A stretch of DNA of 64,000 nucleotides, from the NCBI RefSeq assembly GCF_001424025.1, contig NZ_LMPZ01000001.1, positions 125,074 to 189,073 of the forward strand. The letters run 5' to 3'. Positions 25,333 through 45,923 of this stretch are shown piece by piece. Below the pieces are notes generated by a model. It was not told where the DNA came from, ran no database searches, and saw only the letters and a list, made by a program, of their open reading frames with translations. Within the stretch, counting starts at the first letter, position 1. Each line of letters opens with the position of its first letter. Source of the stretch: Brevundimonas sp. Leaf363 (GTDB taxonomy: Bacteria; Pseudomonadota; Alphaproteobacteria; Caulobacterales; Caulobacteraceae). The translations under genes and the position numbers were made by a program.

Positions 25333-25339
25333 AAGTTCG

Positions 25340-26946
<1,607 letters not shown>

Positions 26947-26950
<4 letters not shown>

Positions 26951-29048: not shown

Positions 29049-29050
29049 CC

Positions 29051-30876
29051 ATGATCAACAAGAAAATCGACCCGCAGGACAAGAGCCTGAAGACCCTGTT
29101 TCAGGACTTCTATCGGGTGCCCGATTATCAGCGCGAATACGTCTGGGGCGAGAGCGACCCCAAGGGCGAGGGCGGCGAGGAGGTCGATCAGTTCCTGAAC
29201 GACATCCACATCGAGTTCCAGAACGCCACCAAGGATGACGCGCCGGAGTATTTCATCGGCACCATCGTCGTCTGCCGCGACAGGGACGAGGTGTATGACC
29301 TGATCGACGGCCAGCAGCGGACAACTACGGCCTACGTCACGCTGTGCGCTATCCGCGACACTCTCAAAGCGCTCGAAGCCGCCGTTCCGGACGAGTTGCC
29401 CGGCCAGATCGCCGCCAGCTCGACCGACTGGCAGGGCAACACCCAGCACCGCCTTCGCTTGGATCTGCAGTATGAAGACGCCGGCGGCATTCTGGAACGC
29501 TACGCCAACGGCGAGGCGGCCGAGGCACCGCGCGACGGCACGCGCTCGATTCGCAATCTCGGCAACGCCTACGACACGGTGCGCGAGTTCTTGCGGACGA
29601 CCTTCGCCGACGACCCGGCTGAGATCCGGCGATTCTACGGCTACCTGACCAACAAGGTGAAGGTGATCCGGATCGAGACGCCAACTGTCACCATGGCCTT
29701 GAAAATCTTCGAGACCATCAATGATCGCGGCGTCGGCCTAGACGCCATGGACCTGCTGAAGAACCTGCTCTTCATGCACGCCAAGGGGGACGAGTTCGGC
29801 AAGCTAAAGGCTGTCTGGAAGAACCTGACTGACGCCATTTACAAGGCGCGGGAGAAGCCGCTTCGGTTCCTGCGATACTACCTGTTGGCGACCTACGACC
29901 TCGACGGAAAGCTGCGCGAGGACGCGATCTACGACTGGTTCCAGAAGAACGCCGACATCACCGGGCACGCCACCAAACCACTGGCATTCGCCAACCAGCT
30001 GCTGGAAGCGGCGCAGGCTTATGCCAATTTCGCGCGCGGCATGAACGTAATTGGTCAGCCCGAACCGGGCATCGAGAACACCCGCCTGCTGGGCGGCCAG
30101 TCGATCAAGCAGCACTTCATGTTGCTTCTGTCTGGACGACGCCTGTCTACGACGAACTTCAGCCGCTTGGCCGATGAGATCGAGAAGACGATGTTCGTCT
30201 GGCTCATCACCGGCACCCCGGCCAAGGAATACGAGCGCCGTATCATTGAAGCAGCCCACCGGCTGCGGGGCACCGCGGATGATCAGCTCGACGCGTTTAT
30301 CCGTGATGTGTTCGTCAAAGAGCGGGCGGCGCTAGATCGCGAATTCGAGCACGCCTTGCTGACCTTGAGCACGCGGAACGTCCGTCAATTCCGGCTGCGC
30401 TATCTGCTCGCCAAAATGACCCAGTACGTCGATCTGCAGGCTTACGGCCCAAGCGAGTCGCGCAACCGGCTTGCCGACTACACTGCCGGCGGCAATGACA
30501 TTGAGCACATCTTGCCGGACAGCGGCCATCCTGACGCCCTTGCTGAGTTCGGTGAGGGGGGCGACGATCAGGCCATCATTCAGAGCATCGGCAACCTGTT
30601 GCTGATCGAGAAGTCGATCAACCGATCGATCTCGAACGGCCGTTACTCGGGCAAGGTCGGCGCCTACGCTCAATCCAAGTTTCTGCTCACGCGGTGCCAG
30701 GCGAGCACAGAGGCTCAGGAGGTTGGCTCCGCCGATAAGATCACTAAGGCGGTCCAGGGTCTGGAATGCTGGCCGGAATGGCATGCGGAGGCCGTCGCGC
30801 AGCGTCAGCGGTTGCTGAGCAGACTGTCGCGGCGCGTTTGGGATGTGCCCTCGGCCAGCGTGGCGGAAGCCGCGTG

Positions 30877-30877
<1 letters not shown>
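29051..30877 (+). CDS. GmrSD-like DUF262/DUF1524 protein embedded in the type I operon
   Basis: The 608-residue protein joins an N-terminal DUF262 domain and a C-terminal DUF1524 (HNH-like) domain. DUF262 is shown by [13 protein letters not shown] near residue 25, [25 protein letters not shown] near 70-97 and [27 protein letters not shown] near 215-240. DUF1524 is shown by [11 protein letters not shown] near 480 and [17 protein letters not shown] near 515. GmrSD enzymes use the first domain as an NTP-driven sensor and the second as a nuclease against modified DNA. The gene is coupled to hsdR by a one-base overlap. Confidence 0.85.
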
Positions 30878-34020
<3,143 letters not shown>

Positions 34021-34147
34021 CAGACCTCGAGTTCGAAAGCCGATGATGCACGGCAGGTGTTTCCCAGAAACCATTGGCCGCCCTTAAATTCGGCGAACAG
34101 TGGTCAGCTCGCGCCGTGCTGCCTGATCGCGCCGAGTCTGCAGGCGA

Positions 34148-34495
34148 CTATCTGAACTGCGCGCTTTGTTTAAGCCGCTCTTCCACTAAGTGCTCCCGCG
34201 CGCGTTGCGCGGCACTATCGCGCGCAGAGTCGCGCATCTGTCTCGCAGTCGAAGCAGCATCTCTTTCAGGCAAGTGATTTTGCAACGTCTGAACCATCAC
34301 TGTCTCGAATGAGGCGAGATCGGGTGCGCAGTAATCAGTCGCCCTGCTAACCGTCACTTCAACCGGTTCCGGCCTTTCGGCTGCGAGCTCCGTAGACTTG
34401 CTCAGCATGCACTGCCGATAGGCTGCCACATAAGAATCTGTCGGCGCCAGGTCCATGGGAGACTGACTGAGGCCGGCTATCAAAGCGATCAACAT
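34148..34495 (-). CDS. Hypothetical exported or membrane-anchored protein
   Basis: Not recognised. From ATG 34495 the protein is 115 residues, with a hydrophobic start MLIALIAGLSQSPMDLAP that may be a signal peptide. A soluble part follows with two Cys (AYRQCMLSKS and DYCAPDLASFE) that could form a disulfide, and an Arg/Glu-rich C-terminus. The frame is open to 34612, so a longer form with a basic stretch before the hydrophobic segment is possible. Neither start has a strong ribosome binding site. Confidence 0.5.
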   Translation of the reverse strand: MLIALIAGLSQSPMDLAPTDSYVAAYRQCMLSKSTELAAERPEPVEVTVSRATDYCAPDLASFETVMVQTLQNHLPERDAASTARQMRDSARDSAAQRAREHLVEERLKQSAQFR

Positions 34496-34651
34496 AGCTG
34501 ACCATAGACCACTTACCCTGAAACCGAAGAACCGTTTGCGCTGCGCCCGGTGGTCATTTTCATACGGCCCCACTACCGCGCGGATGGTAAGTGACCCTGC
34601 CGGCGGGATCACCGTCAGGCAGGGTTTTGGCGTTACGCAGCGGGATGAGTG

Positions 34652-35167
34652 TCAGCCACTTAGCGGCTGAATGTCGGACAGCTTGAGGTCGGGAACGACG
34701 CCTAGGTAGGGGCGGGTCGGCTTCCTCGGCTTCGCCCGCACCTTCACTCTCGCCTTCACCTTTTGGGCGCGCAGGCTCGGGATTGTCCACTCGGGCCGAT
34801 GGTGGTGCACCATAGGCTTCTTAAGCGCCCGCGCGATCTCGCGGGCTTCCTTGTCCGACCCGACGATCAGGACCTCGACGGTCAGCCTGTGGCGGTTCTC
34901 ATAGATCAGGCGACCGACGTAGTGGTTCCGGCCGCTCCAGCTGGCCCGGATGAAATCGGACAGACGCTTGGCCAGCCCGCCGCCCTTATCGGTCCCGGTG
35001 CCGATCGCCATGACCACACCGTTCAGCAATACGCGATAGAGCCCGACCTTGTACCGCAGGTCCGGCTGATACGCCTCCAGACCGCCCGCAATGCGGACCC
35101 AGAAGCGGTCCCACTCGGCACGGGTCTTGTCACCATACAGCTGCAATTCGTTCGTCTTCATGTTCAT
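34652..35167 (-). CDS. Hypothetical protein with a possible GIY-YIG-like core
   Basis: The 171-residue protein has YKVGLYRVLLNGVVMAIGTG near residues 39-58, GLAKRLSDFIRAS near 64-76 and NHYVGRLIYENRHRLTVEVLIVGS near 81-104. The spacing Y-x-V...G...IG...L..RL, then a polar strand, recalls the GIY-YIG nuclease fold, though the key Arg and Glu are not certain. The C-terminal third is very basic (KVKARVKVRAKPRKPTRP), which suits nucleic acid binding. It lies just downstream of the integrase remnant on the same strand. Confidence 0.55.
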   Translation of the reverse strand: MNMKTNELQLYGDKTRAEWDRFWVRIAGGLEAYQPDLRYKVGLYRVLLNGVVMAIGTGTDKGGGLAKRLSDFIRASWSGRNHYVGRLIYENRHRLTVEVLIVGSDKEAREIARALKKPMVHHHRPEWTIPSLRAQKVKARVKVRAKPRKPTRPYLGVVPDLKLSDIQPLSG

Positions 35168-35239
35168 GTCCTTTCCAAAAAATATGGGGAGTTGGTGCCC
35201 CGCACGCCGACCGAAGTCAGCGCACGAGGCGGGGAGGGG

Positions 35240-35414
35240 TCAGCCGGCCTGTTTCGCCGCGCCGGCCTCGACAGCCTTCAGCAGGGTGTCGTTGGCCAGG
35301 TGGGCGTAGCGCTGGGTCGACTGGTAGTTGGCGTGGCCCAGCACCTTGCTTAGCCTTGCCCGGCGGACAGACAGCCGTCGACAGCAAGGCGTGGGTGATC
35401 AAAGCCTTCGGCAT
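35240..35414 (-). pseudogene. Tyrosine-recombinase (integrase) remnant with the middle deleted
   Basis: A good ribosome binding site (AGAAGGAG) precedes ATG 35414 and the typical integrase N-terminus MPKALITHALLSTAV..PPGK. After 22 codons the frame breaks. The next frame then reads LSKVLGHANYQSTQRYAHLANDTLLKAVE to a TGA at 35242-35240. This is the recombinase C-terminus with the conserved HxxY and nucleophile region (Q-R-Y-A-H-L). About 300 codons are missing and the junction changes frame, so the protein cannot be active. It may be the lost integrase of this island or of an older element. Confidence 0.8.
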
Positions 35415-35749
35415 AAGGCGGACTCCTTCTGTGGTTGGAAATCGGCGCAGGGGCGCCGTGACCGCCGCGCGGGCGGGCGCGGCGGCGGGGGGTGGATGGG
35501 GAAGCCTGGAGCAGGGCCGGAGGCCCGCAGTCGCCCCAGAGTTGGCCGAGTAGGCCACGCGTCGGGGCGGCGGATGGTGGGGCCATGGTCGGCCCCCGGC
35601 GGCCGTCAGCGGGCCGCGATTTGGGCGCCGTCGGAAGGAGCGGCGACCGAGTCAGATTTTCAGATTTTCAGTTCAGCAGATCGTTGGGCTCTGACGGGTC
35701 CGGACGCCGCCGAGACGCTGAAAAGCTGCGAAACTGATTTTCTGCGGCG
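35415..35749. other. Intergenic region left of the integrase remnant start
   Basis: 335 bases, GC-rich on the left and with a short A/T-rich direct repeat CAGATTTTCAGATTTTCAG near 35654-35672. It must hold the former integrase promoter. I see no convincing gene. Confidence 0.4.
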
Positions 35750-36163
35750 CTACTCCTCCTCCGCCTCGTCGATATGCTTGGGGATGAGGACGTAACGCTG
35801 AACGCCGCGCGGGCCCTTGGCGAAGGTCCAGTAGTGCTGACCGATCGTCGTTCCGGTGTAGCGTTCAAGGACACCCAGGGCGACGCGGTGAGAGACGCCG
35901 CACTCCGCTGCAGTGGCCTTTGCGAGCGCCATCTTGCCGCCTGCGAAGTCGCCATCGATCAGCTGATCGATCGTGATCGCCACACGGTGTTCTGCGACCT
36001 CCGCCTCGGTGACGCAGAACTCGTCCAGGTCGTCAGGATCGACCCTTTGGACCGAGGCCAGCTTCTGGTCGTAGCTGACCCCTTCTTCGTTGGCGTAACT
36101 GAACGCAACCCGGTCAGGGCTATCGGCGCGCTTCTTCTCCATCGTGAACAGGACGATGGTCAT
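35750..36163 (-). CDS. C-terminal part of a RecA-like (RepA/AAA_25-type) ATPase, separately started
   Basis: The 137-residue protein begins MTIVLFTMEKKRADSPDRVAFSY and has EEGVSYDQKLASVQRVDPDDLDEF, which resembles the segment after the ATPase core in AAA_25 helicase-like proteins. A later HTH-like part is ATAAECGVSHRVALGVLERYTG. It overlaps the previous gene by ATGA and has its own strong site (GGAGGTGAGGCATG), so it is probably translated on its own. It is the third piece of what looks like a single ancestral gene. Confidence 0.55.
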   Translation of the reverse strand: MTIVLFTMEKKRADSPDRVAFSYANEEGVSYDQKLASVQRVDPDDLDEFCVTEAEVAEHRVAITIDQLIDGDFAGGKMALAKATAAECGVSHRVALGVLERYTGTTIGQHYWTFAKGPRGVQRYVLIPKHIDEAEEE

Positions 36164-36477
36164 GCCTCACCTCCAGCCTTCGGCTTCATGACCTGGGCGA
36201 TGTAGACGGCATCGAAGTCCTCCAGGATGTCGGTGGTGCCTTGGTACTGAGGCGTCCCATCAGCCTTCGGGTTCTTCCGAGTGTGTCCCAAGCCGACGAC
36301 GGTGCCGCCGGCCAAGACGTACTGACGACACACGTCACCCAGGGTGCTGGAGCTGTTCTTGTCCATGAGGTTGGCAAACTTCTTGACCGTGTCGATGATG
36401 ACCACGGTCCCTCTTGCGGTGTCGTTCGCCACGGCCTGCAGCATGAGGTCGAGAAATTGATTGGCTCTCATTCTCAT
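36160..36477 (-). CDS. Middle part of the split RecA-like ATPase (Walker B region)
   Basis: The 105-residue piece carries RGTVVIIDTVKKFANLMDK (Walker B strand and Asp) and AGGTVVGLGHTRKNPKADG, then GTTDILEDFDAVYI. These follow the Walker A part in one chain in AAA_25 proteins. It begins ATG at 36477, overlapping the upstream stop by four bases, and no good ribosome binding site precedes it. A single-base frameshift or -1 ribosomal frameshifting would join it to the upstream piece. Confidence 0.6.
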   Translation of the reverse strand: MRMRANQFLDLMLQAVANDTARGTVVIIDTVKKFANLMDKNSSSTLGDVCRQYVLAGGTVVGLGHTRKNPKADGTPQYQGTTDILEDFDAVYIAQVMKPKAGGEA

Positions 36478-36917
36478 AGGCCCGGCACCACCATGTGGGC
36501 GCCAACATCCTTCAGAAGACGCGCCTTCGCCGCCACGCCTTTGCTGGTGTCATCGGCGTTGACGTAGAAGACGCGATCAGGGTCGATGCGACCTTGTTCG
36601 ATCGCATCGAGCAGCAGGTTCAACACAATCAGCGTTTTGCCGGTGTTGGGCGCGGCGTAGATCATGGTGGCTTGGCCGCTCATGATGAAGTCGCCAAGCA
36701 GCGGCTTGGTGTCGGCGGCTTTGGCCTCGAGCTCTTCCGCCCGGCCGAGGAGGCTAAAGGGGAGGAGCGGGTTTTTCCTCTCAGGTCCAACAATCGAAAT
36801 ATCGACGGTCGGAAGAGCTGCGGTGGCGACGCTAACGTCAGCGTTTCGCTCGGGTCCCTTGGCAACGCCGTGGGAAGTGCCTCTTCCCGCTTGGTCGGCA
36901 GGATCTTGGTCGCTCAA
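36474..36917 (-). CDS. N-terminal part of the split RecA-like ATPase (Walker A region)
   Basis: Carries MIYAAPNTGKTLIVLNLLLDAIE (Walker A) and RVFYVNADDTSKGVAAKARLL, and ends VGAHMVVPGL just where family members continue. I place the start at TTG 36917 (LSDQDPADQAG), because CGGAG lies 7 bases before it. An ATG at 36944 in the same frame has no such site. In family members this part and the next two pieces are one protein used in plasmid or island replication. Here it cannot hydrolyse ATP without the Walker B piece. Confidence 0.6.
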   Translation of the reverse strand: MSDQDPADQAGRGTSHGVAKGPERNADVSVATAALPTVDISIVGPERKNPLLPFSLLGRAEELEAKAADTKPLLGDFIMSGQATMIYAAPNTGKTLIVLNLLLDAIEQGRIDPDRVFYVNADDTSKGVAAKARLLKDVGAHMVVPGL

Positions 36918-37167
36918 AATGTATCTCCGTTGATTTGCGAACATGGACTGGACGAGCCCCGAACCGATCAGAGTCGAGTTCAGTGGGCGCGACCGAGGCA
37001 AACATGCGTGCTGAATCAGCGGTTTGATAGGTGCCCAGCTCTAGTACCGCTCGCATAAACAGTCGGGTCTAAGCGAATGCATCGTCCCGCAGGACCTTGC
37101 ATAAATTGCAAGTGGACTTCGTGCTGGTACGACGTCAGATCGCAGGCGAAAATTGAGGATAGCCGCA

Positions 37168-37518
37168 TTGAAGCGCCCGAAAAGCGATAAGTTTGGTGAT
37201 CTGCGAGTTGGCTCGCTCGAGGCCTTTGTGGAGGTCTATGAGAGCCGGGTCCGAGAGGCGACCGCAGCGGACCTGGGGAAGGTGCACCCCACCACAATCA
37301 CGCGACGCATTGAGCGGCTGGAAAAGTGGCTGGGACACGGAGCGCAGATGCTCGTGTTCGACGGAAACTTGCCCACCGCTAAAGGAGCCGAGATTTATCC
37401 TGTGGCCAAGGAAATCCTGGCTCGCCTTGAAGAGATACGAAGGCAGCCTCCCCAACTGGAAGATGAACCGACAGCTCCAATCGATATTTCCACTATCAGC
37501 GCCCCTGGCAGTGAATGA
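37168..37518 (+). CDS. Small LysR-type HTH protein without an effector domain
   Basis: About 116 residues. FGDLRVGSLEAFVEVYESRVREATAADLGKVHPTTITRRIERLEKWLG is a LysR-like winged helix, and GNLPTAKGAEIYPVAKEILARLEEI matches the end of that domain and the linker helix. No ligand-binding domain follows. I choose TTG 37168, eight bases after GAGGA. TTG 37153 is five codons upstream. It is divergent from the split ATPase, about 250 bases away, and may regulate it. Confidence 0.65.
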   Translation: MKRPKSDKFGDLRVGSLEAFVEVYESRVREATAADLGKVHPTTITRRIERLEKWLGHGAQMLVFDGNLPTAKGAEIYPVAKEILARLEEIRRQPPQLEDEPTAPIDISTISAPGSE

Positions 37519-37600
37519 GCTTGCTGCACCAAGATGGAGCGGCCCCGAGAAGCCGCTCCATATCGTGTCACTTTACGCGTAGACCCGCGGCCTGTTCAGT

Positions 37601-37729
37601 TGGCGGCAGTCTAGCGTCCCACTCGTGGACGTGCTGGAATTCGTAGCCCTCGCGAGGGCCATGAGGGTCGATCCGTCGGAGCTGTTCGAGCGGGTCTTGA
37701 AGCGCCTACCGAAGCAGGTCGTCATCTGA
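37601..37729 (+). pseudogene. Fragment of an XRE-type HTH gene (C-terminal end)
   Basis: The frame reads W-R-Q-S then VDVLEFVALARAMRVDPSELFERVLKRLPKQVV and a TGA at 37727. It matches the end of the intact XRE protein at 39486-39737 (RRVDVVEFCEIAEALGKDPARLLQGF). The HTH itself and a start are missing. It runs antisense to the end of the membrane-protein gene at 37706-38014. Confidence 0.55.
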
Positions 37730-38014
37730 AGCCGCGATTCGGGCCACATTGGTCCGGCGTCTGGCGGGCTGTCCTACCGCCCAGACCAGCCAGACGAGCC
37801 CGATCGTGATCGCTAGGGCGACAACGAAGGCGACCGGATGGGCGTGGGCCATGCTGAAGAGGCCGATGGTGATGATGAGCGCGAGGGTCTCCCTAGGGCG
37901 GGTGACGAAGGAGACGACTAGCGCCAACCCGATCGCCACCACGATCACCGACAAGGCGGCCTTCAGAACCGCCAGGACGATGATCAGTGTGAGGAAGCCA
38001 AGGCCGCCCCTCAC
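37706..38014 (-). CDS. Small multi-spanning membrane protein
   Basis: The 102-residue protein starts at GTG 38014, overlapping the stop of the preceding gene by four bases (GTGA). Three to four hydrophobic segments are visible: LGFLTLIIVLAVLKAALSVIVVAIGLALVVSFV, ETLALIITIGLFSM and VAFVVALAITIGLVWLVWAVG. The tail is short and charged. The function is unknown. The same reading frame is open to 38428, but there it is a shadow of the neighbouring gene. Confidence 0.6.
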   Translation of the reverse strand: MRGGLGFLTLIIVLAVLKAALSVIVVAIGLALVVSFVTRPRETLALIITIGLFSMAHAHPVAFVVALAITIGLVWLVWAVGQPARRRTNVARIAASDDDLLR

Positions 38015-38403
38015 TGCATCTCCCCGGCGTCGTCGAACCAGAAGTGCGACATGCAGAGGCTGTGGACGCCCAGCTCGGTCGCGGGGCTGTTCTCGACGAA
38101 GATGAAGGTGCGCCGGCCGCGACGGCGGTAGGCGACCTCGAACCACAGGCCGTAGTCCTCGATCCAGTCGTAGTCCGGCTCCTCGGCCCGGTCCCCGGTC
38201 ATGGGGAAGCCGACGGCTCGGTTGATGACGTCGGGCGTGTCGCCGCCTTCTACGACGACGAAGCGGGTCCGGCAGCTCAGCCGGCGTCCGCTGTCGGCTT
38301 CCAGCTGCAGGGCCCGAAGCTCCATGAGGGCGCGCAGGTCGGGGTCCAGGCGCGGGTTGTTGATCGCTCGCGCCAGGGCGCAGCGGCTGTTCAGTGCAAG
38401 CAC
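38011..38403 (-). CDS. Hypothetical protein, paralogue B of a tandem pair
   Basis: The 130-residue protein shares LDPDLRALMELRALQLEAD, RFVVVEGGDTPDVINRAVGFPMT and WIEDYGLWFEVAYR with its neighbour at 38484-38867, so the two arose by duplication. No signal peptide or membrane segment is present. I do not recognise the family. A terminator-like hairpin ends about 23 bases before its start. It is coupled to a small membrane protein downstream. Confidence 0.65.
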   Translation of the reverse strand: MLALNSRCALARAINNPRLDPDLRALMELRALQLEADSGRRLSCRTRFVVVEGGDTPDVINRAVGFPMTGDRAEEPDYDWIEDYGLWFEVAYRRRGRRTFIFVENSPATELGVHSLCMSHFWFDDAGEMQ

Positions 38404-38425
38404 GGTGGTGGGTCCTTTCGGGCAA

Positions 38426-38459
38426 CAAAAAAAGCCCCTGCGACGGTGTCGAGGGGCTC
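38426..38459 (-). terminator. Terminator-like hairpin just before the paralogue B start codon
   Basis: On the - strand AGCCCCT...AGGGGCT is followed by seven T (38427-38433 read as A on the + strand). It lies between the two paralogues, and only about 23 bases separate it from the ATG at 38403. There is little room for a promoter after it, so it could act in attenuation. Confidence 0.7.
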
Positions 38460-38483
38460 GGGCGGTGATGGTTTGGTAGGTGC

Positions 38484-38867
38484 TCAGACGGCCGGTCGGT
38501 CCGACACGCCGAGGCAGATGAAGCGCAGGGTGTGGTTGGTGTCAGGATGGTCGGCCACGAAGACCAGCATCCCGAAGTCGTCGGTCAGGACGTAGGCCAG
38601 CTCGAACCAGGTCCCATGGTCCTGCACCCACTCAAAGCCAGGCTGGTCGGCCTGCTCCCAAGTGACGGGGAAGCCGACCGCCTCGTGGATGGCCTCAGGC
38701 GTGTCGCCGGGCTGGACGACGACGAACTGGACCATCTCACCGAGGGGGCGGGATCGTTCTGTGTCGAGCTGCCAGACCCGGAGTCCCAGAAGGGCGCGTA
38801 GATCGGGGTCTAGGGATCGGTTGGAGATGGCCGCCGCGACGGCGTCGCGGTCGGTGAGGGAGAGCAT
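38484..38867 (-). CDS. Hypothetical protein, paralogue A of a tandem pair
   Basis: The 127-residue protein has LDPDLRALLGLRVWQLDTE, QFVVVQPGDTPEAIHEAVGFPVT and WVQDHGTWFELAY, clearly related to the gene at 38011-38403. There are no Cys clusters, no nuclease motif and no membrane segment. The family is not recognised. The ribosome binding site AAAGGAGCC precedes the ATG and is matched by AAAGGACCC before paralogue B. A terminator-like hairpin ends about 25 bases before its start. Confidence 0.65.
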   Translation of the reverse strand: MLSLTDRDAVAAAISNRSLDPDLRALLGLRVWQLDTERSRPLGEMVQFVVVQPGDTPEAIHEAVGFPVTWEQADQPGFEWVQDHGTWFELAYVLTDDFGMLVFVADHPDTNHTLRFICLGVSDRPAV

Positions 38868-38890
38868 AAGCGGGCTCCTTTCAGGTCAAA

Positions 38891-38922
38891 GAAAAAGCCC
38901 CGCGACGGATGTCACGGGGCGG
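38891..38922 (-). terminator. Terminator-like hairpin just before the paralogue A start codon
   Basis: On the - strand GCCCCG (38920-38915 read down) pairs with CGGGGC (38902-38897) and is followed by TTTTTC. It may end transcription of the membrane-protein gene at 38969-39331. It also sits in the leader of paralogue A in the same relative place as the hairpin before paralogue B. Confidence 0.75.
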
Positions 38923-38968
38923 CTTGTGTGATCGCCTAAGGATCAGGCGAATGGTGCGTTAGAGCCGG

Positions 38969-39331
38969 TCAATCTCCGGAGGCAGTCGCAGTCCTAGGTG
39001 TCTTCCTGCGGCGCGTAAGGAACATGACGCCGGCAGCGACCACTATGCCAAGGGTGCCCCATAGAAGGAGGCTCTCGTACAGAGTGATCCTACGCTCCGT
39101 AATCAGCACGCTCGGATGCGAGAGGCTGTACTCAACCTGACGCCGATTTTCGGCCTGATACTCCTCGGACTCGTAGAACGCAGTACTCGCGTCCCCGACC
39201 ACCTCGCTACTCCGAGCGATGCTGGCCTCGAAATTTCTTAGTGGAAAATAGTTGGTTGCCCAAAGTCCGCCTACGATGACGTAGAAGGTAACCACGGCCG
39301 CTAGAGCTATTCTGAAAGTGCTATTGTTCAT
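38969..39331 (-). CDS. Hypothetical protein with two membrane segments
   Basis: The 120-residue protein has an N-terminal hydrophobic helix IALAAVVTFYVIVGGLWA and a second one LLLWGTLGIVVAAGVMFL near residue 90. About 65 residues of polar, probably periplasmic sequence lie between them, and the tail is basic (TRRRKTPRT). This hairpin-in-membrane layout is common in small island-borne proteins. No family is recognised. Confidence 0.55.
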   Translation of the reverse strand: MNNSTFRIALAAVVTFYVIVGGLWATNYFPLRNFEASIARSSEVVGDASTAFYESEEYQAENRRQVEYSLSHPSVLITERRITLYESLLLWGTLGIVVAAGVMFLTRRRKTPRTATASGD

Positions 39332-39440
39332 TCGTGTTCTCCATCTTGGTTAGACGGCACTTCCTGTGCTCATCATATAAGATGCCGAGTTTCCCGCATG
39401 CCTCGGGACCGGCCACCCCGCCTCGACGATAACCGATTCT

Positions 39441-39484
39441 GGGATATCCCGGTTTGGGATTTAGCGAAAGCGCCTCACGTGAGG
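39441..39484. promoter_or_regulatory. Two palindromes just upstream of the XRE regulator gene
   Basis: GGGATATCCC (39441-39450) and CCTCACGTGAGG (39473-39484) are perfect palindromes, and the second overlaps the ribosome-binding position of the gene that starts at 39486. They are candidate operators for autoregulation. CCTCACGTGAGG contains CACGTG but is not a parS site. Confidence 0.4.
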
Positions 39485-39485
39485 G

Positions 39486-39737
39486 GTGCGCTCGTTGCCG
39501 TCATCGATCTTCACGCAGCGGCACCAGGCGCTGATCGCCTTCCTGGGCACCGCTCGCCGCGACGCGGGGCTGACGCAGGTCGAGCTAGCGGGTCGTCTTG
39601 GCCGTCCTCAGAGCTTCGTCTCCAAGGTCGAGCGTGGCGAGCGTCGGGTGGATGTCGTGGAGTTCTGCGAGATCGCCGAGGCCCTGGGTAAGGACCCGGC
39701 GAGGCTGCTCCAGGGCTTCATCGACCCGGCCGGCTGA
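39486..39737 (+). CDS. XRE-family HTH regulator
   Basis: The 83-residue protein is essentially a Cro/C1-type domain: TARRDAGLTQVELAGRLGRPQSFVSKVERGERRVDVVEFCEIAEALGKDP. It starts at GTG. No effector domain follows. Such proteins often repress the neighbouring operon in restriction islands. The divergent hypothetical operon and the second hsd operon are both close enough to be targets. A broken copy of the same kind lies at 37601-37729. Confidence 0.8.
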   Translation: MRSLPSSIFTQRHQALIAFLGTARRDAGLTQVELAGRLGRPQSFVSKVERGERRVDVVEFCEIAEALGKDPARLLQGFIDPAG

Positions 39738-39974
39738 CGGCGCGCGGTGAACCGCCCGGCGGGCGTTGTTTCGGATCGGCTTTCGGGCGACCCGGTCTTG
39801 TCACGCAAAAGCTTGGCGCCGCGCAAGCATCGTCCGGTCAGAAGTGGGAGCGTTTGATCAGCGCCACGAGCGACATTCTGACCCTCGATGAACGCGAGAT
39901 ACAGCAAACAAGTCCGCAATGCGTCGACGGTAGCTCTCGAGACAAGCCGTCGAATAAAGACTCACCTTGGACCC

Positions 39975-41072
39975 TCAGGCTGCGACAGCGTCGTCCGGAA
40001 AAGCTGCGGCACCTGTCTCAGGGCTAAGCAGTCCGATAAGCCAAGCGGTGACACGATCCGACGCCGCGCCGTTTTCACAGTGATGCACAAGCATCTCGAA
40101 GGTCGCGATCTTTAGGAAGTCGGCGAAACCGTCCCCGATCACGGCCTGCCGATAGCGGTTCAGCAAGGCGATCAGTTCGCCTTGGGTGGTTGGCGGTTCC
40201 GCCTCCTTGACCGCCCAGTTCGCAAGATGGTCGAGCCAGTGCCGGAACTCGGCGTCGAGAATATTGAGCCGATAGCGGGTCCGGATTTTGTAGACGTCAT
40301 CCCATGTCGCGATCAGGTCCAGATCTCCGAGAAGGTCAATCTGCCAAGCCGGAAGCACCGTCATTTTCTCGACCGAGCCTTCCAGCGGGCTGCTGTTTAT
40401 CAGGGACACGCCGGCGACCAACTGGCCAAAGGGATCGAAACAACGCCGCCTCACGCCCCCTGCGTCGCGCAGCATGTCGACAGCCAGCTTGTGCGAGCTG
40501 TTACACCGGTTGCCCGCCGGTGCCAGGTTGCGCAGGTTCGCGGCCGCGAAAGGATACTGCGACGACGACAGATAGTGGTCGAGACTTTCGCGGGGGATCC
40601 GTGGGTCAGGCGACGACATCGGCTCGATCCCGCAGAAGGGGCAGATATGCGCCGGCATGGCGGCATAGACCTGGGCATACTGGCGGTCCCGTACTCCCAG
40701 TGATGCGAGGGCTTTAAACGCGACATCGAACAGGTTCGCCACAGCCCTTGAGAATGCGGCCGGCCCATCCGGCGTATCGGACAGCGCCTCGGCCGGCTCG
40801 AAGATCGCAGGAAGCTGATTTTGACTTTGCATGCAGGCGAGATAGGCCGCACGCCGCTTAGCGCTCAGTCTTGCGCCTCGCGCCGCCACGGCTTCAAGGG
40901 CGGTCAGGATCGATCGCTTGCGCGCAATCTCTGCGCGTTTGTCTAGTGGGAAGACCGCCAGCCAGTTGGCGAGGGGGTCTGCGTCTCCCGCGAACACGCG
41001 GGTCAGAAGTGTCATTAGGCCATCGTGCAGCCAGTTCTCGGACGCTGCTTCAATCGGGTAGCAGAACAGCAT
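39975..41072 (-). CDS. HNH-type nuclease-like protein, last gene of the hsdR-less type I operon (system 2)
   Basis: The 365-residue protein has an N-terminal helical region of about 140 residues. A zinc-ribbon HNH-like core follows: ICPFCG near residues 142-147, ESLDHYL near 162, FAAANLRNLAPAGNRCNSSHK near 173-195. This is C-x2-C, D-H, N, then C-x3-HK, the layout of HNH nucleases such as the PtuB partner of Septu ATPases. It lies 3 bases after the ATPase gene. It is longer than typical PtuB. The nuclease role is inferred from the motif. Confidence 0.75.
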   Translation of the reverse strand: MLFCYPIEAASENWLHDGLMTLLTRVFAGDADPLANWLAVFPLDKRAEIARKRSILTALEAVAARGARLSAKRRAAYLACMQSQNQLPAIFEPAEALSDTPDGPAAFSRAVANLFDVAFKALASLGVRDRQYAQVYAAMPAHICPFCGIEPMSSPDPRIPRESLDHYLSSSQYPFAAANLRNLAPAGNRCNSSHKLAVDMLRDAGGVRRRCFDPFGQLVAGVSLINSSPLEGSVEKMTVLPAWQIDLLGDLDLIATWDDVYKIRTRYRLNILDAEFRHWLDHLANWAVKEAEPPTTQGELIALLNRYRQAVIGDGFADFLKIATFEMLVHHCENGAASDRVTAWLIGLLSPETGAAAFPDDAVAA

Positions 41073-41075
41073 CGG

Positions 41076-42650
41076 TCAGGACGGCTGCTTAAGCTGGCGA
41101 AGCCGGTCCGCTAGGAAGGACCGCTCCACCGATGGCCCTAGTTGCGTGAGAGCCAGTTCAATCTCCGCAGCATCGCCCTCTTTGAGAAGGCCCTGCATTT
41201 TGTCATGTGCCACTTGGGAAATCGGGGGGCTCACGCGGAAGCAGGCATCCAGGATACGATCGAAGGATGCACCGAAAGTCTCGATCGAAGGCGGTCCGAC
41301 CGTCAACCGGCCTTCTTCGCGTTTGAAAATGAGGACCTGCTCCCGAGGAAGATCGCAAGGGACGAAGGGTGCATGGGTCGTCAGCAGAACTTCCTGGCGG
41401 CCACGCGCTCCGTTGGGCAACCCGAGCAGCGATTTGGTGAACTGCACGCGCCATTGCGGATTGAAGTGAGACTCCGGCTCGTCGAGGATGAACAGGGCGT
41501 CCGGGTCCTCCATCATTGAAAAAATGCCGAGTATCTGGGCGAACTGGTGCTCGCCGTCGGACAGGGACACATAGTCCAATGTCGCGGCGCGGCCGTTGAC
41601 ACGACGTCGGAAGGCAACCTGTTCAAACCGGAAGACCTTGTCCTCGTCCTGAGGCTCGGGAAGCCGAGACGCGAAACGGCGCGTGTCGATATCCTTCTGC
41701 AGGCGCAAGCGGGCTTCGCGGGGAATGGCGAGATCGTTCAGCAGTGCGATCTTATGGAAGGCTCGGTAGAGATCGGCGGCTGTGTTGAAATGCGCGGCAA
41801 ATCCCGCCCGTGTGGCCTCATTGACGAAGAAATCCAGGGTATAGGCGTCCAACTTTGGGTCGTGATGCCAGCAGGTCGCCAAGGCTTTAAAGGTCTCGAC
41901 GTAGCCGCGCAGTTCGGGGGTCAGCTGGACGCCGTCCGCCGGGGCGGCCGCGTGCTTCAGCTGGATCACGCAGCGGAATGACGCCAAGTCTTCCAATCCG
42001 GCGTGGTCGATGATGCCCGTGCGAGTTTTAGCCTTGGCCAGCAACAAGTTAGCGACCAGAACTTCAAGATGGGTGCTGTAGTCGATCAGCAGAAGGCGGT
42101 TGTCAGGCACGACGTCCGGCATCGGCTTGTCTGACTTCGGCCTTGCCGCCTCGCGCACATCTCTGGCGTAGCCGCTCCGGCTCACGAAAAAGGGCAGGCT
42201 GAGGGTCTCATTGTCCCCAGATGTATATCCGACAACGAGGGACGGCAGATTCCGCGTGAAATCTCGCGCCTTCGCGGTAACGGCGACCCATTCGCCCTCC
42301 TCAGACTGAACCGCCATCTCGACCGGTCCGACCGTGCGCCCCGTCCGTGACCGTGATAGCCTGACGACGCGTTCAGCATCCCCCTTTGGCGCAATGCTAT
42401 AGCGGACCTCGAACGTGGACTCCGTGTTGGAGCTCGTGCGTTCCTGTTCTTTGGCGCCCGTGTGCCACGCTGTCTGGAAGATTTCGGCGATCAACTGCAA
42501 CAGCTGGGACTTGCCAGCGCCGTTGGGACCGATCAGGCAAAGCGGCGCCAGGCTGGCATCGTCAGAGGGCCTCGACACCGAGAGTTCAAGACCATCGAGG
42601 AGGCCGCCGCAGCTGACGGCGCTGTCCACGCGAAGATAGAACAGTCTCAT
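41076..42650 (-). CDS. Restriction-associated AAA/ABC-type ATPase (system 2)
   Basis: The 524-residue SMC/ABC-like ATPase has Walker A IGPNGAGKSQLLQL at residues 40-53 and the signature-like VSLSDGEHQFAQILGIF near 355-371. Walker B is ALFILDEPESHFNP near 380-393, and the H-loop is LLTTHAPFV near 415. I recall a family named restriction system-associated AAA family ATPase, found beside type I methylases. PtuA of Septu is built similarly. It overlaps hsdS by four bases and is followed by the HNH gene, so it belongs to this operon. Confidence 0.85.
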   Translation of the reverse strand: MRLFYLRVDSAVSCGGLLDGLELSVSRPSDDASLAPLCLIGPNGAGKSQLLQLIAEIFQTAWHTGAKEQERTSSNTESTFEVRYSIAPKGDAERVVRLSRSRTGRTVGPVEMAVQSEEGEWVAVTAKARDFTRNLPSLVVGYTSGDNETLSLPFFVSRSGYARDVREAARPKSDKPMPDVVPDNRLLLIDYSTHLEVLVANLLLAKAKTRTGIIDHAGLEDLASFRCVIQLKHAAAPADGVQLTPELRGYVETFKALATCWHHDPKLDAYTLDFFVNEATRAGFAAHFNTAADLYRAFHKIALLNDLAIPREARLRLQKDIDTRRFASRLPEPQDEDKVFRFEQVAFRRRVNGRAATLDYVSLSDGEHQFAQILGIFSMMEDPDALFILDEPESHFNPQWRVQFTKSLLGLPNGARGRQEVLLTTHAPFVPCDLPREQVLIFKREEGRLTVGPPSIETFGASFDRILDACFRVSPPISQVAHDKMQGLLKEGDAAEIELALTQLGPSVERSFLADRLRQLKQPS

Positions 42651-44203
42651 GTCGTCGGCACCTTCAATCGGATGGCCGCTGACGCCGCGTCGTAAGTCTG
42701 CAACAGACCGGGCGGGTCCTCTTGAAGAAGGGCGAAGATCGCCGACTTCATCTCTTCATAGTCCATCGCCACGCGCGACATGGCGTCATCGAACGCCACG
42801 CCGCTCGCGCCGGTGCCCTGAAGGGCGGCCAGAACGATCTCGCGTGGAGGTGAGGGTTTGGGCATGGCGCGTCGTCCCTGTTTGATGCGCTTGTCTGTCT
42901 CCGCCTGAGCGTCCGACACCGCCTTCAGCAGCGCGTCGACTTCCGCGTCCGGCTTGTCCTCGTCCGGATCAGGCCTGAACGCCGATGTCAGAATTTGGCG
43001 GCGAAGGTTGCTGATATCCCTCACGACCCCCTCAAGTAGACGGCGAACGGACTCGATCGATAGACTTATCCGATCAAGGCGCATCGCTATCTCTAGCTGT
43101 TCGGCGAGAGGCGGAAGGGCGAACTCGAATTCCTCAAGCTTACGGGCGTTGATGTTCGACTGGCTGACGCCGTCGGATTTAACGGACCAGCAGTATGCAC
43201 GTCCCGCCGGGCTGTTCAGAAAATGTGCCAGAACGTCGGGAAGGACGTCCGGGCCGCAGCGGACAACTATCAAATATCCAGCCGCGATCGCCGGCTGTTC
43301 GCCGTGGTAGACGGCGGTCTTGCCGACAAGTTCGGGGCTGTTCGTGCGGTTGAAGAGCACACAGCCGTCCTCGAGACGATGCTTTTCGATTTCGGCGGGA
43401 TCTGAGGTGTAGACGAGGTTGGCCCAGTCCAAGCGGCCCGCCTGGATGTTGCCCATGCGGAGGACCGCGACGTCGCCGATGGGTCGGGACTTCTGCGCCG
43501 AGCCATACTTCAGGCTTTTTACGACGTCCTGCAGTCGGACGGGTTTCCAGGCGACCTCGCCGTCCTGACGTGCGCGCCAGCCCGCAGTCAGCGCGCCCGT
43601 AAAGGCGCTTTTGAGAGCCGCTGCGTGAACCGCGTCCAGCTGGTCGAGACTGGCCTGCGCGGCCGCGCGGCTCCGCTCCAGCCTGGCTAGCACGTCGGTG
43701 ATCTCGCCCGCGACACGGTCCTGCTCGGTCTTGGTTGTGAGAAGCACGGGAAACCGCCGTAAGGCATCGAACTCCACGCTCTCGACCGTGGTCCCCGATT
43801 TGACAGCGGCCTCCAACAGCTGATCCGTGAGGGCCTCGATCTGAAGCTGCACGAAGACGGGATTGATCCCGGGCCCCGGCAGCAGGGCTTTGACATCTTG
43901 GTTGATGGTCACTGGCACGAGAGTCAACGCGGTGGGAAGCGAGTGGCTAAGGATGCCGCTGCGCGTGACGATGAGCAGGGTTCCGCTCGGCAGAAGGTTC
44001 GCCCTGCCATCCGCGAGTGCGAGTTCAGTGACCTTGTCCTGCGACGTTGCGAGGCTCTTGGGGCCGAAATCCTTGGGCGAGACCCAAGGCACGTCGCCAT
44101 TCTTCCAGTAAGCGGCGATTCGCTTGCTCGGCGTGGAGCCGCCCTGCCAGCGGCCGAGTGCATCCAGTGTCGTTCGCCGCCACGGCGCACGCCGCGAGAT
44201 CAT
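42647..44203 (-). CDS. hsdS: Type I specificity subunit with a C-terminal extension (system 2)
   Basis: The 518-residue protein has TRD1 (LDALGRWQGGSTPSKRIAAYWKNGDVPWVSPKDF) and a central helix with TKTEQDRVAGEITDVLARLERSRAAAQASLDQLDAVHAAALKSAFTG near 158-203. TRD2 starts near WKPVRLQDVVKSL, and the second helix ends LRRQILTSAFRPD near 412. About 100 more residues follow, with a charged linker and a winged-helix-like end (SPPREIVLAALQGTGASGVAFDDAMSRVAMDYEEMKSAIFALL). Ordinary HsdS stops near 400-450. It overlaps hsdM and the ATPase gene by four bases each. Confidence 0.9.
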   Translation of the reverse strand: MISRRAPWRRTTLDALGRWQGGSTPSKRIAAYWKNGDVPWVSPKDFGPKSLATSQDKVTELALADGRANLLPSGTLLIVTRSGILSHSLPTALTLVPVTINQDVKALLPGPGINPVFVQLQIEALTDQLLEAAVKSGTTVESVEFDALRRFPVLLTTKTEQDRVAGEITDVLARLERSRAAAQASLDQLDAVHAAALKSAFTGALTAGWRARQDGEVAWKPVRLQDVVKSLKYGSAQKSRPIGDVAVLRMGNIQAGRLDWANLVYTSDPAEIEKHRLEDGCVLFNRTNSPELVGKTAVYHGEQPAIAAGYLIVVRCGPDVLPDVLAHFLNSPAGRAYCWSVKSDGVSQSNINARKLEEFEFALPPLAEQLEIAMRLDRISLSIESVRRLLEGVVRDISNLRRQILTSAFRPDPDEDKPDAEVDALLKAVSDAQAETDKRIKQGRRAMPKPSPPREIVLAALQGTGASGVAFDDAMSRVAMDYEEMKSAIFALLQEDPPGLLQTYDAASAAIRLKVPTT

Positions 44204-45582
44204 CCGAGGATCTCGCGGTCGAGCTCCTCGATCTGTCGGAGCGCCGTATGAAGGTCTTCCGATATTCTGCCGATGAGCCGGTCCATGTCCTCAATGTCCG
44301 ACCCGGAACGGCTTCGGGTCAACCAAGTATAATCCAGGTTGTCTTCACGTTCCGCGATCTCGGCGCGGGTCAGCCTGCTTAGACGCTCATCGGCCGTCGA
44401 CGCGGCCCCTCCTGCCCCCCGAACGATCATGCTGCAGCTTTCTTCAAACGCCTTGAACGCCGCCTCCGACAAGGGATTGCGCTTGTTGAAGCGACGTACG
44501 TTGGTCCGCATGTCGTAGAACCAGACCTCTTTCGTCGGACGCCCCGACTGGAAGAACAGGACGTTGGTGTTGACGCCCTGGGCGTAGAAGATGCCCTGCG
44601 GAAGCCGCAGGATGAGCCGCAGGTCGCACGAAGAGAGAAGATCGCTCCGGACTCGGCGCCCGACGCCGGGTTCAAATAGGACATTGTCTGGCAAGATGAC
44701 GGCTGCCCGACCGCCTGACCGCAGCGAACGGTAGATATGCTGCAGGAACATCAACTGCTTGTTCGTCGTCTGGAACGGCAGGTCCAAACGTTTAGGTCGA
44801 ACGCCGCCGGCCGCCATTCCGAAGGGCGGATTGGCCAGGATCAGATCCGGTGCGCTGAGTTTGTCGACGTCCTCTGTCAGTGCATCGCCGTGAACCATCA
44901 CGCTGTCCATCTGATGCAGGACCAGATTCATCAGACAGAGCCGGTAAGTGTCGCGCTCGATTTCCACGCCTTCGAACCGCGCCGGCCGCGCCGGTTTTTC
45001 GTTCCGTCCGAGAATGAAGTCGTGCGCCGAGGTCAGGAAACCACCTGTTCCCGCCGCCGGGTCTTGGATGGTCTCTCCGCCCTGAGGCGCCATAATGCGG
45101 ACGATGCAATCCACCAGCGGCCGTGGCGTGAAATACTGTCCCGCCCCAGCCCGTGCTTCGGTGGCGTTCCGTTCCAGCAGGCTTTCATAGATCAGGCCGA
45201 AGGCGTCATTCGACACGCCCGCCCAGTCTAGTCGGTCTATCTCCTGGACGACCTTGTGCAGGTTCTCGTCGTGGCTGAACACTGTGGTAGGGAACCCGAA
45301 GATTTCCCGCACCACTTGACTATCGGAGTCCTCGCCGAGCTGGGTCAGCATCTTGCGATAGACGCCGACCAGCCCCAGCGAAGGTTGCTCGGTAAGATCC
45401 TTCCAGCGGCACCCGGGTGGGAGTTGCTCGTTCTGGCGGGTCTGGTCCGCGATCTTCAGGAACAAGAGGTAGGTGAGCTCGGACATGTATTTGTGAAACA
45501 CGATGCCGTCGTCGCGTAACACATTGGATAGTGACCAGATTTTTCTGGAAAGCTCATCGCACCGGATGTCTTCGACGCCCAC
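44200..45582 (-). CDS. hsdM: Type I methyltransferase subunit (system 2)
   Basis: N6-adenine methyltransferase of the second system. The 460-residue protein starts at GTG and has the HsdM N-terminal domain (LSNVLRDDGIVFHKYMSELTYLLFLKI). SAM motif I is IQDPAAGTGGFLTSA near 168-182 and motif IV is LILANPPFGMA near 247-257. AGQYFTPRPLVDCIV is the usual lead-in. It opens the operon hsdM-hsdS-ATPase-HNH, which ends without hsdR. The only hsdR in the window is in system 1, about 10 kb away on the other strand. Confidence 0.92.
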   Translation of the reverse strand: MGVEDIRCDELSRKIWSLSNVLRDDGIVFHKYMSELTYLLFLKIADQTRQNEQLPPGCRWKDLTEQPSLGLVGVYRKMLTQLGEDSDSQVVREIFGFPTTVFSHDENLHKVVQEIDRLDWAGVSNDAFGLIYESLLERNATEARAGAGQYFTPRPLVDCIVRIMAPQGGETIQDPAAGTGGFLTSAHDFILGRNEKPARPARFEGVEIERDTYRLCLMNLVLHQMDSVMVHGDALTEDVDKLSAPDLILANPPFGMAAGGVRPKRLDLPFQTTNKQLMFLQHIYRSLRSGGRAAVILPDNVLFEPGVGRRVRSDLLSSCDLRLILRLPQGIFYAQGVNTNVLFFQSGRPTKEVWFYDMRTNVRRFNKRNPLSEAAFKAFEESCSMIVRGAGGAASTADERLSRLTRAEIAEREDNLDYTWLTRSRSGSDIEDMDRLIGRISEDLHTALRQIEELDREILG

Positions 45583-45847
45583 TTCAGCCCCTCGAGAAAG
45601 TCCAGTGTGTTTGCTGTTTCTGGCCGAAGCCGCGTCCCATGCGCGTCGCCGACGATCCTTAGACCATCTGACTCTACGCGCCTACCCAAGCTAGCAGCAG
45701 ACACTGTGAGTGGCAGCTATGAGCCCCAAGCGGACAGCGTTGAGTTCGCGTCCCCCTAAGCGGAAACGCCACCCAGCAGGCACCCACGACAATCCTGAGC
45801 GGACGATGCGTCCCCCCAGTGCGAAGTCGATTGCCTATCGGGAATGG

Positions 45848-45923
45848 TGGTGCCGCTTGCGTGACTCGAACACGCGACCCCCGCATTACGAATGCGATGC
45901 TCTACCAGCTGAGCTAAAGCGGC
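45848..45923 (-). tRNA. tRNA-Thr (anticodon CGT)
   Basis: 76 bases including an encoded CCA. The acceptor stem is GCCGCTT/AAGCGGC with discriminator A. The D stem is GCTC/GAGC, and the anticodon stem TCGCA/TGCGG holds loop TTCGTAA, anticodon C-G-T. The T arm is GCGTG-TTCGAGT-CACGC. All stems pair, with one G-T pair at the top of the anticodon stem. It is the integration target of the island, and its 3' half was supplied or restored by the element. Confidence 0.96.

What the first reader, a model, noticed from the sequence alone, without database searches (positions are those of the whole stretch)
39975..45582. Type I-like methylase operon without hsdR but with an ATPase-HNH pair
hsdM, an unusual hsdS, an SMC/ABC-like ATPase and an HNH-type protein are joined by four-base overlaps or a 3-base gap, and no restriction subunit is present. 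The ATPase-HNH pair resembles the Septu (PtuA/PtuB) layout. The operon could be a defence system in which methylation marks self and the ATPase plus HNH replace the translocating HsdR, or in which the pair guards against phage anti-restriction. I know of an ATPase family named for association with restriction systems, but not of a described mechanism for this four-gene unit.
Basis: partly seen in the sequence, partly recalled or inferred. Interest (0 to 1): 0.87.

Follow-up and report, generated by a model that had tools for sequence, protein, structure and literature searches.

The report
Methylase-linked Septu-like ATPase–nuclease operon
A four-gene bacterial operon joins a DNA methylase to a two-protein "kill switch" of the kind found in phage-defence systems called Septu and retrons, in place of the usual DNA-cutting motor, which suggests that bacteria reuse one weapon behind quite different alarm sensors.

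Summary
In detail: hsdM, hsdS, an ATPase and an HNH gene lie head to tail (overlaps of 4 and 4 bases, then a 3-base gap), all open, with no hsdR in the operon. The ATPase belongs to NCBI family TIGR04435 and resembles PtuA; the HNH model's only solved match above Z 5 is the HNH nuclease of a type I-A retron. The pair is most likely a PtuAB (Septu/retron) effector module wired to a Type I methylase.
Of 31 intact loci found through the ATPase, all keep hsdM, hsdS, ATPase and HNH; 23 have hsdR in front, one an hsdR without its motor, seven none. The tree needs at least five changes of hsdR state, and an R-less pair still shows purifying selection: hsdR is usual but dispensable.
The "unusual" HsdS carries a C-terminal winged helix, detected in 25 of the 31 loci and in none of 81 control HsdS: a candidate dock.
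Best reading (inferred): the methylase gates the effector, as reverse transcriptase plus msDNA does in retrons and EcoprrI does for PrrC. Trigger and substrate are unknown; no experiment was done. New variant of a known kind.

The parts
44200..45582 (-). hsdM: Type I N6-adenine DNA methyltransferase subunit, 460 aa, motifs DPAAGTGGFL and NPPF present
   Evidence: PF02384 2.4e-64, HsdM_N 6.5e-7; PADLOC MTase_I 1.9e-158; motifs; NPPF in 32 of 32 aligned homologues
42647..44203 (-). hsdS: specificity subunit, 518 aa; residues 1-415 model as a normal two-TRD HsdS
   Evidence: PF01420; model against solved HsdS-type chains Z 18.6-25.2 over residues ~2-415
42650..42862 (-). C-terminal winged-helix extension of HsdS (residues ~448-518), candidate docking domain for the ATPase-HNH pair
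   Evidence: helix-helix-helix-hairpin, block pLDDT 78-91 from residue 451 on; Z 9.5-10.1 to winged helices, rmsd 1.9-3.8 over 62-72 residues; profile matches 25 of 31 loci and 0 of 81 control HsdS at E<0.1
41076..42650 (-). PtuA-like ABC/SMC-type ATPase, TIGR04435 'restriction system-associated AAA family ATPase', 524 aa
   Evidence: TIGR04435 388.8 bits, cut-off 300; PADLOC PtuA 1.5e-41; family profile finds retron Ec78 and Septu PtuA structures
42507..42530 (-). Walker A of the ATPase (residues 41-48, GPNGAGKS)
   Evidence: G41, G44, G46, K47, S48 in 33 of 33 rows that reach it
39975..41072 (-). PtuB-like HNH protein, 365 aa
   Evidence: AlphaFold model pLDDT 89.4; only match above Z 5 is 9n69_F, HNH nuclease of a retron I-A complex, Z 9.2, rmsd 5.2, 202 of 225 residues
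40488..40643 (-). HNH core: CxxC (C144, C147), DH (D165, H166), N182, C190-N191, K195; the fourth zinc cysteine is Gly187 here
   Evidence: conservation in 35 homologues; Gly at 187 in 5 of 35
45848..45923 (-). tRNA-Thr(CGT), likely insertion site of the island
   Evidence: ARAGORN
23528..45892 (.). about 22-kb genomic island bounded by a 54-nt direct repeat of the tRNA-Thr 3' part; carries both the companion Type I R-M system and this operon
   Evidence: repeat D2, 85% identity, 23528-23581 and 45839-45892
25340..34020 (+). companion Type I R-M operon: hsdM, hsdS, DUF6615, GmrSD-like Type IV enzyme, hsdR (not part of the unit; context)
   Evidence: Pfam; its HsdR has no blastp hit (1e-5) to HsdR of the surveyed loci and its HsdM is 24-28% identical to their HsdM

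Best explanation
A PtuAB-type ATPase-HNH effector, the module that also forms Septu and the effector of type I-A retrons, has been put under the control of a Type I methylase. HsdM2-HsdS methylates the host's sites and reads the methylation state of DNA; the added winged helix of HsdS holds or signals to the PtuA-like ATPase. While host DNA is methylated and the methylase is undisturbed the pair stays quiet. When the methylase meets foreign unmodified DNA, or is blocked by a phage anti-restriction protein, the ATPase releases or switches on the HNH nuclease, which cuts nucleic acid (tRNA as in retron-Eco7 and Septu EcB88, or DNA) and stops the infection. HsdR, present in most relatives, is a second and dispensable arm and is absent here. 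Shown by computation: gene content, effector family and probable fold, conserved active sites, repeated absence of hsdR with the rest maintained, and the HsdS extension. Inferred: physical docking, gating, trigger and substrate.
For: M, S, ATPase and HNH in 31 of 31 intact loci found through the ATPase, in Pseudomonadota, Bacteroidota, Bacillota and Cyanobacteriota; hsdR in 23, motor-less in 1, absent in 7. At least 5 changes of hsdR state on the ATPase tree (31 rows scored; direction not determined). R-less clade L039/L104/L105 supported 100/99; between L104 and L105 dN/dS (NG86) is 0.034 for M, 0.045 for the ATPase, 0.12 for HNH, and their HsdS target domains have diverged (8-56% identity per 25 residues outside one 88% central block) while residues 376-475 keep 72-80%, so recognition still seems to matter without R. 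NPPF kept in all seven R-less HsdM and L052. HsdS winged helix: with the window's clade held out the profile finds 5 of 6 of its members at E<0.01, and 3 of 3 held-out R-less Bacteroidota; 0 of 81 controls at E<0.1. PtuA homology, PtuB-like fold. Precedents: retron-Eco7 PtuAB is toxic and needs both RT and msDNA for neutralisation (PMC11555353, passages); PrrC is sequestered in a Type I enzyme complex and released on T4 infection (PMC3874165, passages; PMC12707154, passages).
Against: No interaction or activity was tested. Six of 31 loci gave no match to the winged-helix profile (L030, L038, L079, L080, L024, L098), yet keep the pair, so docking cannot depend on this domain everywhere; held out, L033, L098 and L024 were missed and L025 was weak (E 0.037), and L023 of the window's clade was missed. 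The window HNH lacks one of four zinc cysteines. The HNH match (Z 9.2, rmsd 5.2, mostly helical model) is moderate, and Foldseek gave none. [quoted passage not shown] The dS values of L104/L105 (0.9-2.8) are near or beyond saturation, so the ratios are rough. An HsdR in trans is not excluded for some R-less loci: the genome of L032 has one 44% identical to L023's HsdR, and for L024 and L025 only the plasmid was searched.
Confidence: 0.5

Rival explanations
1. The pair is a true restriction enzyme of the methylase: M2S finds unmodified target sites and the ATPase-HNH pair cuts that DNA, doing HsdR's job without translocation.
For: Methylase motif NPPF and target-domain diversification persist in R-less loci, as expected if unmodified sites are the trigger. 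Septu of E. coli ATCC 25922 was reported to target nicked phage DNA (quoted in PMC11555353, passages).
Against: 23 of 31 intact loci keep a long hsdR (905-1175 aa) with the pair, so the pair is not mainly R's substitute. Two relatives with a mapped target deplete or cleave tRNA-Tyr in cells (PMC13096335, passages; PMC11555353, passages).
Confidence: 0.25
2. A free-standing Septu-like pair travels in Type I operons as cargo; M and S here are an orphan methylase left by loss of hsdR, with no mechanistic link.
For: hsdR state changed at least five times and one hsdR has lost its motor; the locus lies in an island; one homologue (L031) is an ATPase-HNH piece at a contig start, and no M or S was seen in the last 12.4 kb of the contig that ends in an ATPase fragment (L067). 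Six of 31 loci lack the HsdS extension by profile.
Against: M and S are present in 31 of 31 intact loci; the S-ATPase junction is overlapping or within 10 bases in 29 of 31 and the ATPase-HNH junction in 31 of 31 (longest-frame starts); HsdS carries a domain tied to this ATPase; M, ATPase and HNH show purifying selection in an R-less pair.
Confidence: 0.17
3. HsdR is supplied in trans by the companion Type I operon 6 kb away, so the unit is an ordinary Type I system with an accessory pair.
For: One complete hsdR lies in the same island. In another R-less case (L032) the genome holds an HsdR 44% identical to L023's on another contig, beside an hsdS without the ATPase.
Against: The companion HsdR has no blastp hit (1e-5) to any HsdR of the surveyed loci, and the companion HsdM is only 24-28% identical to their HsdM; the whole genome gave no match to the HsdR of L023. 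R-less genomes G1464 and G864 gave no match to the HsdR of L103, G1436 only weak ones (best 9.5e-12, 26%); G864 has one weak HSDR_N match (1e-7).
Confidence: 0.05

Closest known systems
Septu (PtuA-PtuB)
   Same: ATPase with PtuA-profile match in 34 of 34 members followed by a PtuB-like HNH protein; H-to-N spacing of 16 residues (H166/N182) equals that of H75/N91 of Septu EcB88 (PMC13096335, passages)
   Different: with hsdM and hsdS in 31 of 31 intact loci; about 90 more residues before the HNH histidine; the window HNH matches no PADLOC PtuB profile at 0.001
Type I-A retron effector (retron-Eco7/Ec78)
   Same: same kind of effector pair; there a nucleic-acid-bound partner complex holds a toxin pair in check (that role of the methylase is inferred here)
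   Different: partner is a methylase, not a reverse transcriptase with msDNA
EcoprrI-PrrC
   Same: ABC-ATPase toxin gene embedded in a Type I operon; gating by the R-M complex (inferred here)
   Different: PrrC is one protein with its own anticodon nuclease; here ATPase and HNH are two proteins, and hsdR can be missing
TIGR04435 restriction-system-associated ATPase (NCBIfam)
   Same: the window ATPase is a member (388.8 bits, cut-off 300)
   Different: the family's name tells only the association; I saw no text on the HNH partner, the HsdS extension or R-less loci
MADS (methylation-associated defence system)
   Same: HsdM-like and HsdS-like proteins beside an ATPase; MAD2 and mad5 profiles match weakly
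   Different: MAD2 score 95.6 against a cut-off of 720, MAD3 19.2 against 420; MADS is larger (recalled), this unit has four genes

Membership tests
TIGR04435 ATPase family | score over the curated cut-off of 300 bits | tested here: met
   388.8 bits, residues 1-521 against 1-567 of 568
Septu | PtuA-type ATPase | tested here: met
   PADLOC PtuA 1.5e-41; PtuA structures found by family profile
Septu | PtuB-type HNH nuclease | tested here: inconclusive
   PtuB-like by structure (9n69_F, Z 9.2), none by Foldseek; a PtuB profile matches 29 of 35 family members but not the window protein
Septu | two-gene system, no further subunits | tested here: not met
   M and S in 31 of 31 intact loci
Retron type I-A | reverse transcriptase with msr-msd RNA | tested here: not met
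   none of the four operon proteins is a reverse transcriptase; the RNA was not searched for
Type I restriction-modification | HsdM and HsdS | tested here: met
Type I restriction-modification | HsdR | tested here: not met
   none in the operon; no HsdR of the kind found with relatives in the genome
PrrC system | PrrC anticodon nuclease between hsd genes | tested here: inconclusive
   PrrC not among the best 25 of 74 PADLOC families shown for the ATPase, nor among the 15 for the HNH protein; the rest of the ATPase list was not shown
PARIS | AriA ATPase with AriB Toprim nuclease | tested here: not met
   AriA profile matches (1.3e-17, below PtuA), partner is an HNH-type protein
MADS | MAD2 methylase over cut-off | tested here: not met
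   95.6 bits, cut-off 720
Anti-phage defence system | protects against phage | not testable with these tools
   no experiment

The most novel reading that the evidence does not exclude
A methylation-gated PtuAB system: HsdM2-HsdS serves as the self/non-self sensor and as the antitoxin of a PtuAB effector through a dedicated HsdS winged helix, so that unmethylated DNA or an anti-restriction protein triggers tRNA or DNA cleavage with no restriction subunit at all. It would make the methylase the third kind of control over the same effector, after none known (Septu) and reverse transcriptase plus msDNA (retrons).
Probability: 0.4. Interest if true: 0.85.

Novelty: new variant of a known kind. Interest (0 to 1): 0.66.

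Why it matters
If right, 'orphan' Type I methylases lacking hsdR are, at least here, not relics but sensors of abortive-infection systems, and one effector (PtuAB) is shared as a plug-in among Septu, retrons and R-M systems. It turns an open question, what TIGR04435 ATPases do, into a simple test: is the pair toxic without its methylase, and what does it cut? It would also extend the PrrC principle (a toxin that guards R-M against phage anti-restriction) to a two-protein HNH effector found in at least four phyla.

Tried and rejected
Close-relative scan of viral contigs with the single ATPase gave nothing; the alignment found 15 loci. No match in the phage collection at 1e-10. Profile search of solved structures with the HNH alignment gave no PtuB, and Foldseek on the HNH model gave nothing at E 0.001 (best 1.4); the second look by VIA-align gave the retron HNH match. 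I looked for a remnant of hsdR in the window by tblastn with the relatives' HsdR: none (E 0.01) outside the companion hsdR region, which the filter left out; only 265 bases lie between hsdM and the tRNA gene. Homologue G125 (L031, L067): its contigs end inside the ATPase, so its gene content could not be settled. One label error: the three outgroup rows were labelled R-plus (L027 lacks R in its stretch); one search repeats the count without them. The pattern for motif I missed L024, L032, L039 and L052; NPPF was found in all eight proteins printed. Rows dropped before the 31-locus count (of 36): L034, L101, L031 (contig edges), L037 (decayed), L029 (ATPase and HsdM each split between frames, no hsdR seen). 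The 31 were chosen by my own ATPase profile (over 350 bits), not by NCBI's cut-off: L030, L079 and L080 lie below it. Other ATPase clades next to Type I genes (e.g. L027, L040-L050, L056-L064, L068-L070) were not counted. The 81 control HsdS include duplicate records of some contigs (e.g. L056/L139). A paper on PtuAB structure was not held.
Full report
What is there. The four reading frames are as described: hsdM 44200-45582, hsdS 42647-44203, an ATPase 41076-42650 and an HNH protein 39975-41072, all on the minus strand, overlapping by 4 and 4 bases and then spaced by 3. Profile searches confirm HsdM and HsdS; the ATPase is over the cut-off of TIGR04435, which NCBI calls 'restriction system-associated AAA family ATPase'. 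The HNH protein matches nothing in Pfam or NCBIfam at 0.001 and, in PADLOC, only candidate families PDC-M62B and PDC-M01B. A Bacillus cereus survey found calls of those two candidates to coincide with Septu calls (PMC11811056, passages).

Surroundings. A 54-nt direct repeat (85% identity) at 23528 and 45839 covers the 3' part of the tRNA-Thr gene at 45848-45923. The two copies bound a 22-kb island. It holds this operon and, on the other strand, a complete Type I system (hsdM, hsdS, a DUF6615 gene, a GmrSD-type Type IV enzyme, hsdR). HSDR_N has one match in the genome, in that hsdR; N6_Mtase has two matches, the two hsdM. The companion HsdR has no blastp hit at 1e-5 to any HsdR of the surveyed loci, and the companion HsdM is 24-28% identical to their HsdM. 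A search of the whole genome with the HsdR of L023, a close relative that has one, gave no match. So the operon has no HsdR of its relatives' kind in cis or in trans.

Effector identity. A profile of 34 family ATPases finds, best first, solved ATPases of type I-A retrons and Septu, then AriA. An AlphaFold model of the HNH protein (mean pLDDT 89.4) has one match above Z 5 among 416 aligned chains: 9n69_F, the HNH nuclease of a retron I-A complex, Z 9.2, rmsd 5.2, 202 residues; the next is 4.7. The model is mostly helical, for which the tool warns that middling Z can be chance, and Foldseek itself gave no significant match. The assignment therefore rests also on a PADLOC PtuB profile matching 29 of 35 family members (not the window's), on the HNH motif and on gene order. 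Residues C144, C147, D165, H166, C190, N191 and K195 are the same in 35 of 35, N182 in 34; the fourth zinc cysteine is Gly in the window and four relatives. The H-to-N spacing equals that of H75 and N91 of Septu EcB88, each needed for defence (PMC13096335, passages).

Survey. Over the family cut-off it is rare: 1 of 131 in the genus, 2 of 398 in the phylum sample, 2 of 394 and 5 of 397 in two orders, 7 of 395 in the phylum of Niabella (G865), 1 of 230 in the class; the samples overlap and several include the window's own genome. Of 36 loci, chosen by my own ATPase profile (three lie under NCBI's cut-off), five were set aside (contig edges or broken genes). Of the other 31, all have HsdM, HsdS, ATPase and HNH (HsdS of L026 is split). 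A long hsdR (905-1175 aa) precedes them in 23, in some after a gap of up to 1.5 kb. In L052 the hsdR reading frames align only with residues 3-81 and 830-1117 of L023's HsdR: the motor is gone while the other four genes are open. In seven (window, L024, L025, L032, L039, L104, L105) my HsdR profile found none and the reading frames upstream do not look like hsdR; those put to Pfam are an integrase piece, MrcB_N, Schlafen-type helicases, IS66 or without family (L105's was not searched). The ATPase tree needs at least five changes of hsdR state (labels of three outgroup rows were wrong and were left out); which changes are losses is not determined. L039, L104 and L105 form a supported R-less clade (100/99).

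HsdR in trans elsewhere. The L103 HsdR found no match in G1464 or G864, weak ones in G1436. G864 has one weak HSDR_N match. The genome of L032 has an HsdR 44% identical to L023's, followed by an hsdS with no TIGR04435 ATPase. For L024 and L025 only the plasmid could be searched, with no match.

Is the R-less form alive? Between L104 and L105 the Nei-Gojobori dN/dS is 0.034 for HsdM, 0.045 for the ATPase and 0.12 for HNH, with dS 1.0-2.8, so the ratios are rough but far from neutral; the R-bearing pair L095/L036 gives 0.10, 0.19 and 0.13. Their HsdS target domains have diverged (8-56% identity per 25 residues outside one 88% central block) while residues 376-475, which hold the last coil and part of the extension, keep 72-80%. 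NPPF stays in all seven R-less HsdM. Thus recognition and methylation seem to matter where no R exists, which argues against a mere relic. Window against its truncated homologue L031: 0.067 (ATPase) and 0.104 (HNH).

The unusual HsdS. Residues 448-518 form a winged helix, Z 9.5-10.1 to winged-helix proteins, rmsd 1.9-3.8; the rest is ordinary HsdS. A profile of this extension, built from 26 HsdS, matches 28 reading frames, two of them (L026, L029) not used to build it; that is 25 of the 31 loci. L030, L038, L079, L080, L024 and L098 gave no match. With the window's clade held out the profile still finds five of six members at E<0.01 (L023 missed), and with the R-less Bacteroidota held out three of three; of four held out on the Priestia/Pedobacter side only L025 appears, weakly (0.037). 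None of 81 control HsdS (duplicates included) scores under E 0.1. In a set of 79 viral HsdM loci, 3 of 3 HsdS (over 350 aa) beside this ATPase have it, against 0 of 55 with no ATPase and 0 of 4 with another ATPase; those three are also in the training set.

How it most likely works. In retron-Eco7 PtuA and PtuB together arrest growth, reverse transcriptase and msDNA are both needed to neutralise them, and tRNA-Tyr is depleted (PMC11555353, passages). Septu EcB88 cleaves the variable loop of tRNA-Tyr upon T6 infection (PMC13096335, passages). PrrC is kept within a Type I enzyme complex and acts when T4 infects and inhibits that enzyme (PMC3874165 and PMC12707154, passages). The simplest synthesis is that HsdM2-HsdS, through the HsdS extension, plays the holding part here. 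Because Ocr acts on the methylase core (recalled; solved Ocr-methylase complexes appear), a guard does not need HsdR, which fits its repeated absence. Direct restriction by the pair remains possible and is the main rival.

Limits. No activity, interaction or phage test exists. Trigger and substrate are inferred from relatives whose own substrates differ. The 31 loci come from capped samples. Literature was searched in an open-access library only, mostly as listings, so a description elsewhere is not excluded.

Noticed in passing
window 23528-45892: A 22-kb island in tRNA-Thr(CGT) bounded by a 54-nt repeat holds two unrelated Type I-type loci; no integrase was recognised among the island genes that were put to Pfam, which were not all of them.
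   Followed up: partly
window 28203-30877: The companion Type I operon carries a DUF6615 gene and a GmrSD-type (Type IV) enzyme between hsdS and hsdR: a nested two-layer defence operon.
   Followed up: no
L028 vs L095; L099 vs L101: Operons with nearly identical HsdM (93-94%) and similar ATPase (81-84%) have HNH proteins only 37-39% identical, with a short variable patch in the ATPase (residues ~100-150): the effector seems to be exchanged like a cassette.
   Followed up: partly
L123 6813-7986 (same contig as L052): An hsdR reduced to its two ends, in two overlapping frames without the helicase part, beside open M, S, ATPase and HNH genes in a viral contig.
   Followed up: partly
L027, L040-L051, L056-L066, L068-L070: Further PtuA-like ATPases also sit in Type I operons, some with no hsdR in the fetched stretch and some in the order S-ATPase-small gene-M; the next gene is HNH-like by pattern in 7 of 24 loci examined. 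Their HsdS are often long (up to 736 aa, or 843 in the cut L046) but do not match the winged-helix profile.
   Followed up: partly
L025 5991-7874; L039 5119-6888: Schlafen group 3 helicase genes lie next to two of the seven R-less loci.
   Followed up: no
window 38128-38262 and 38592-38726: A 135-nt imperfect duplication (73%) lies in two small genes that look like paralogues, between the two systems.
   Followed up: no
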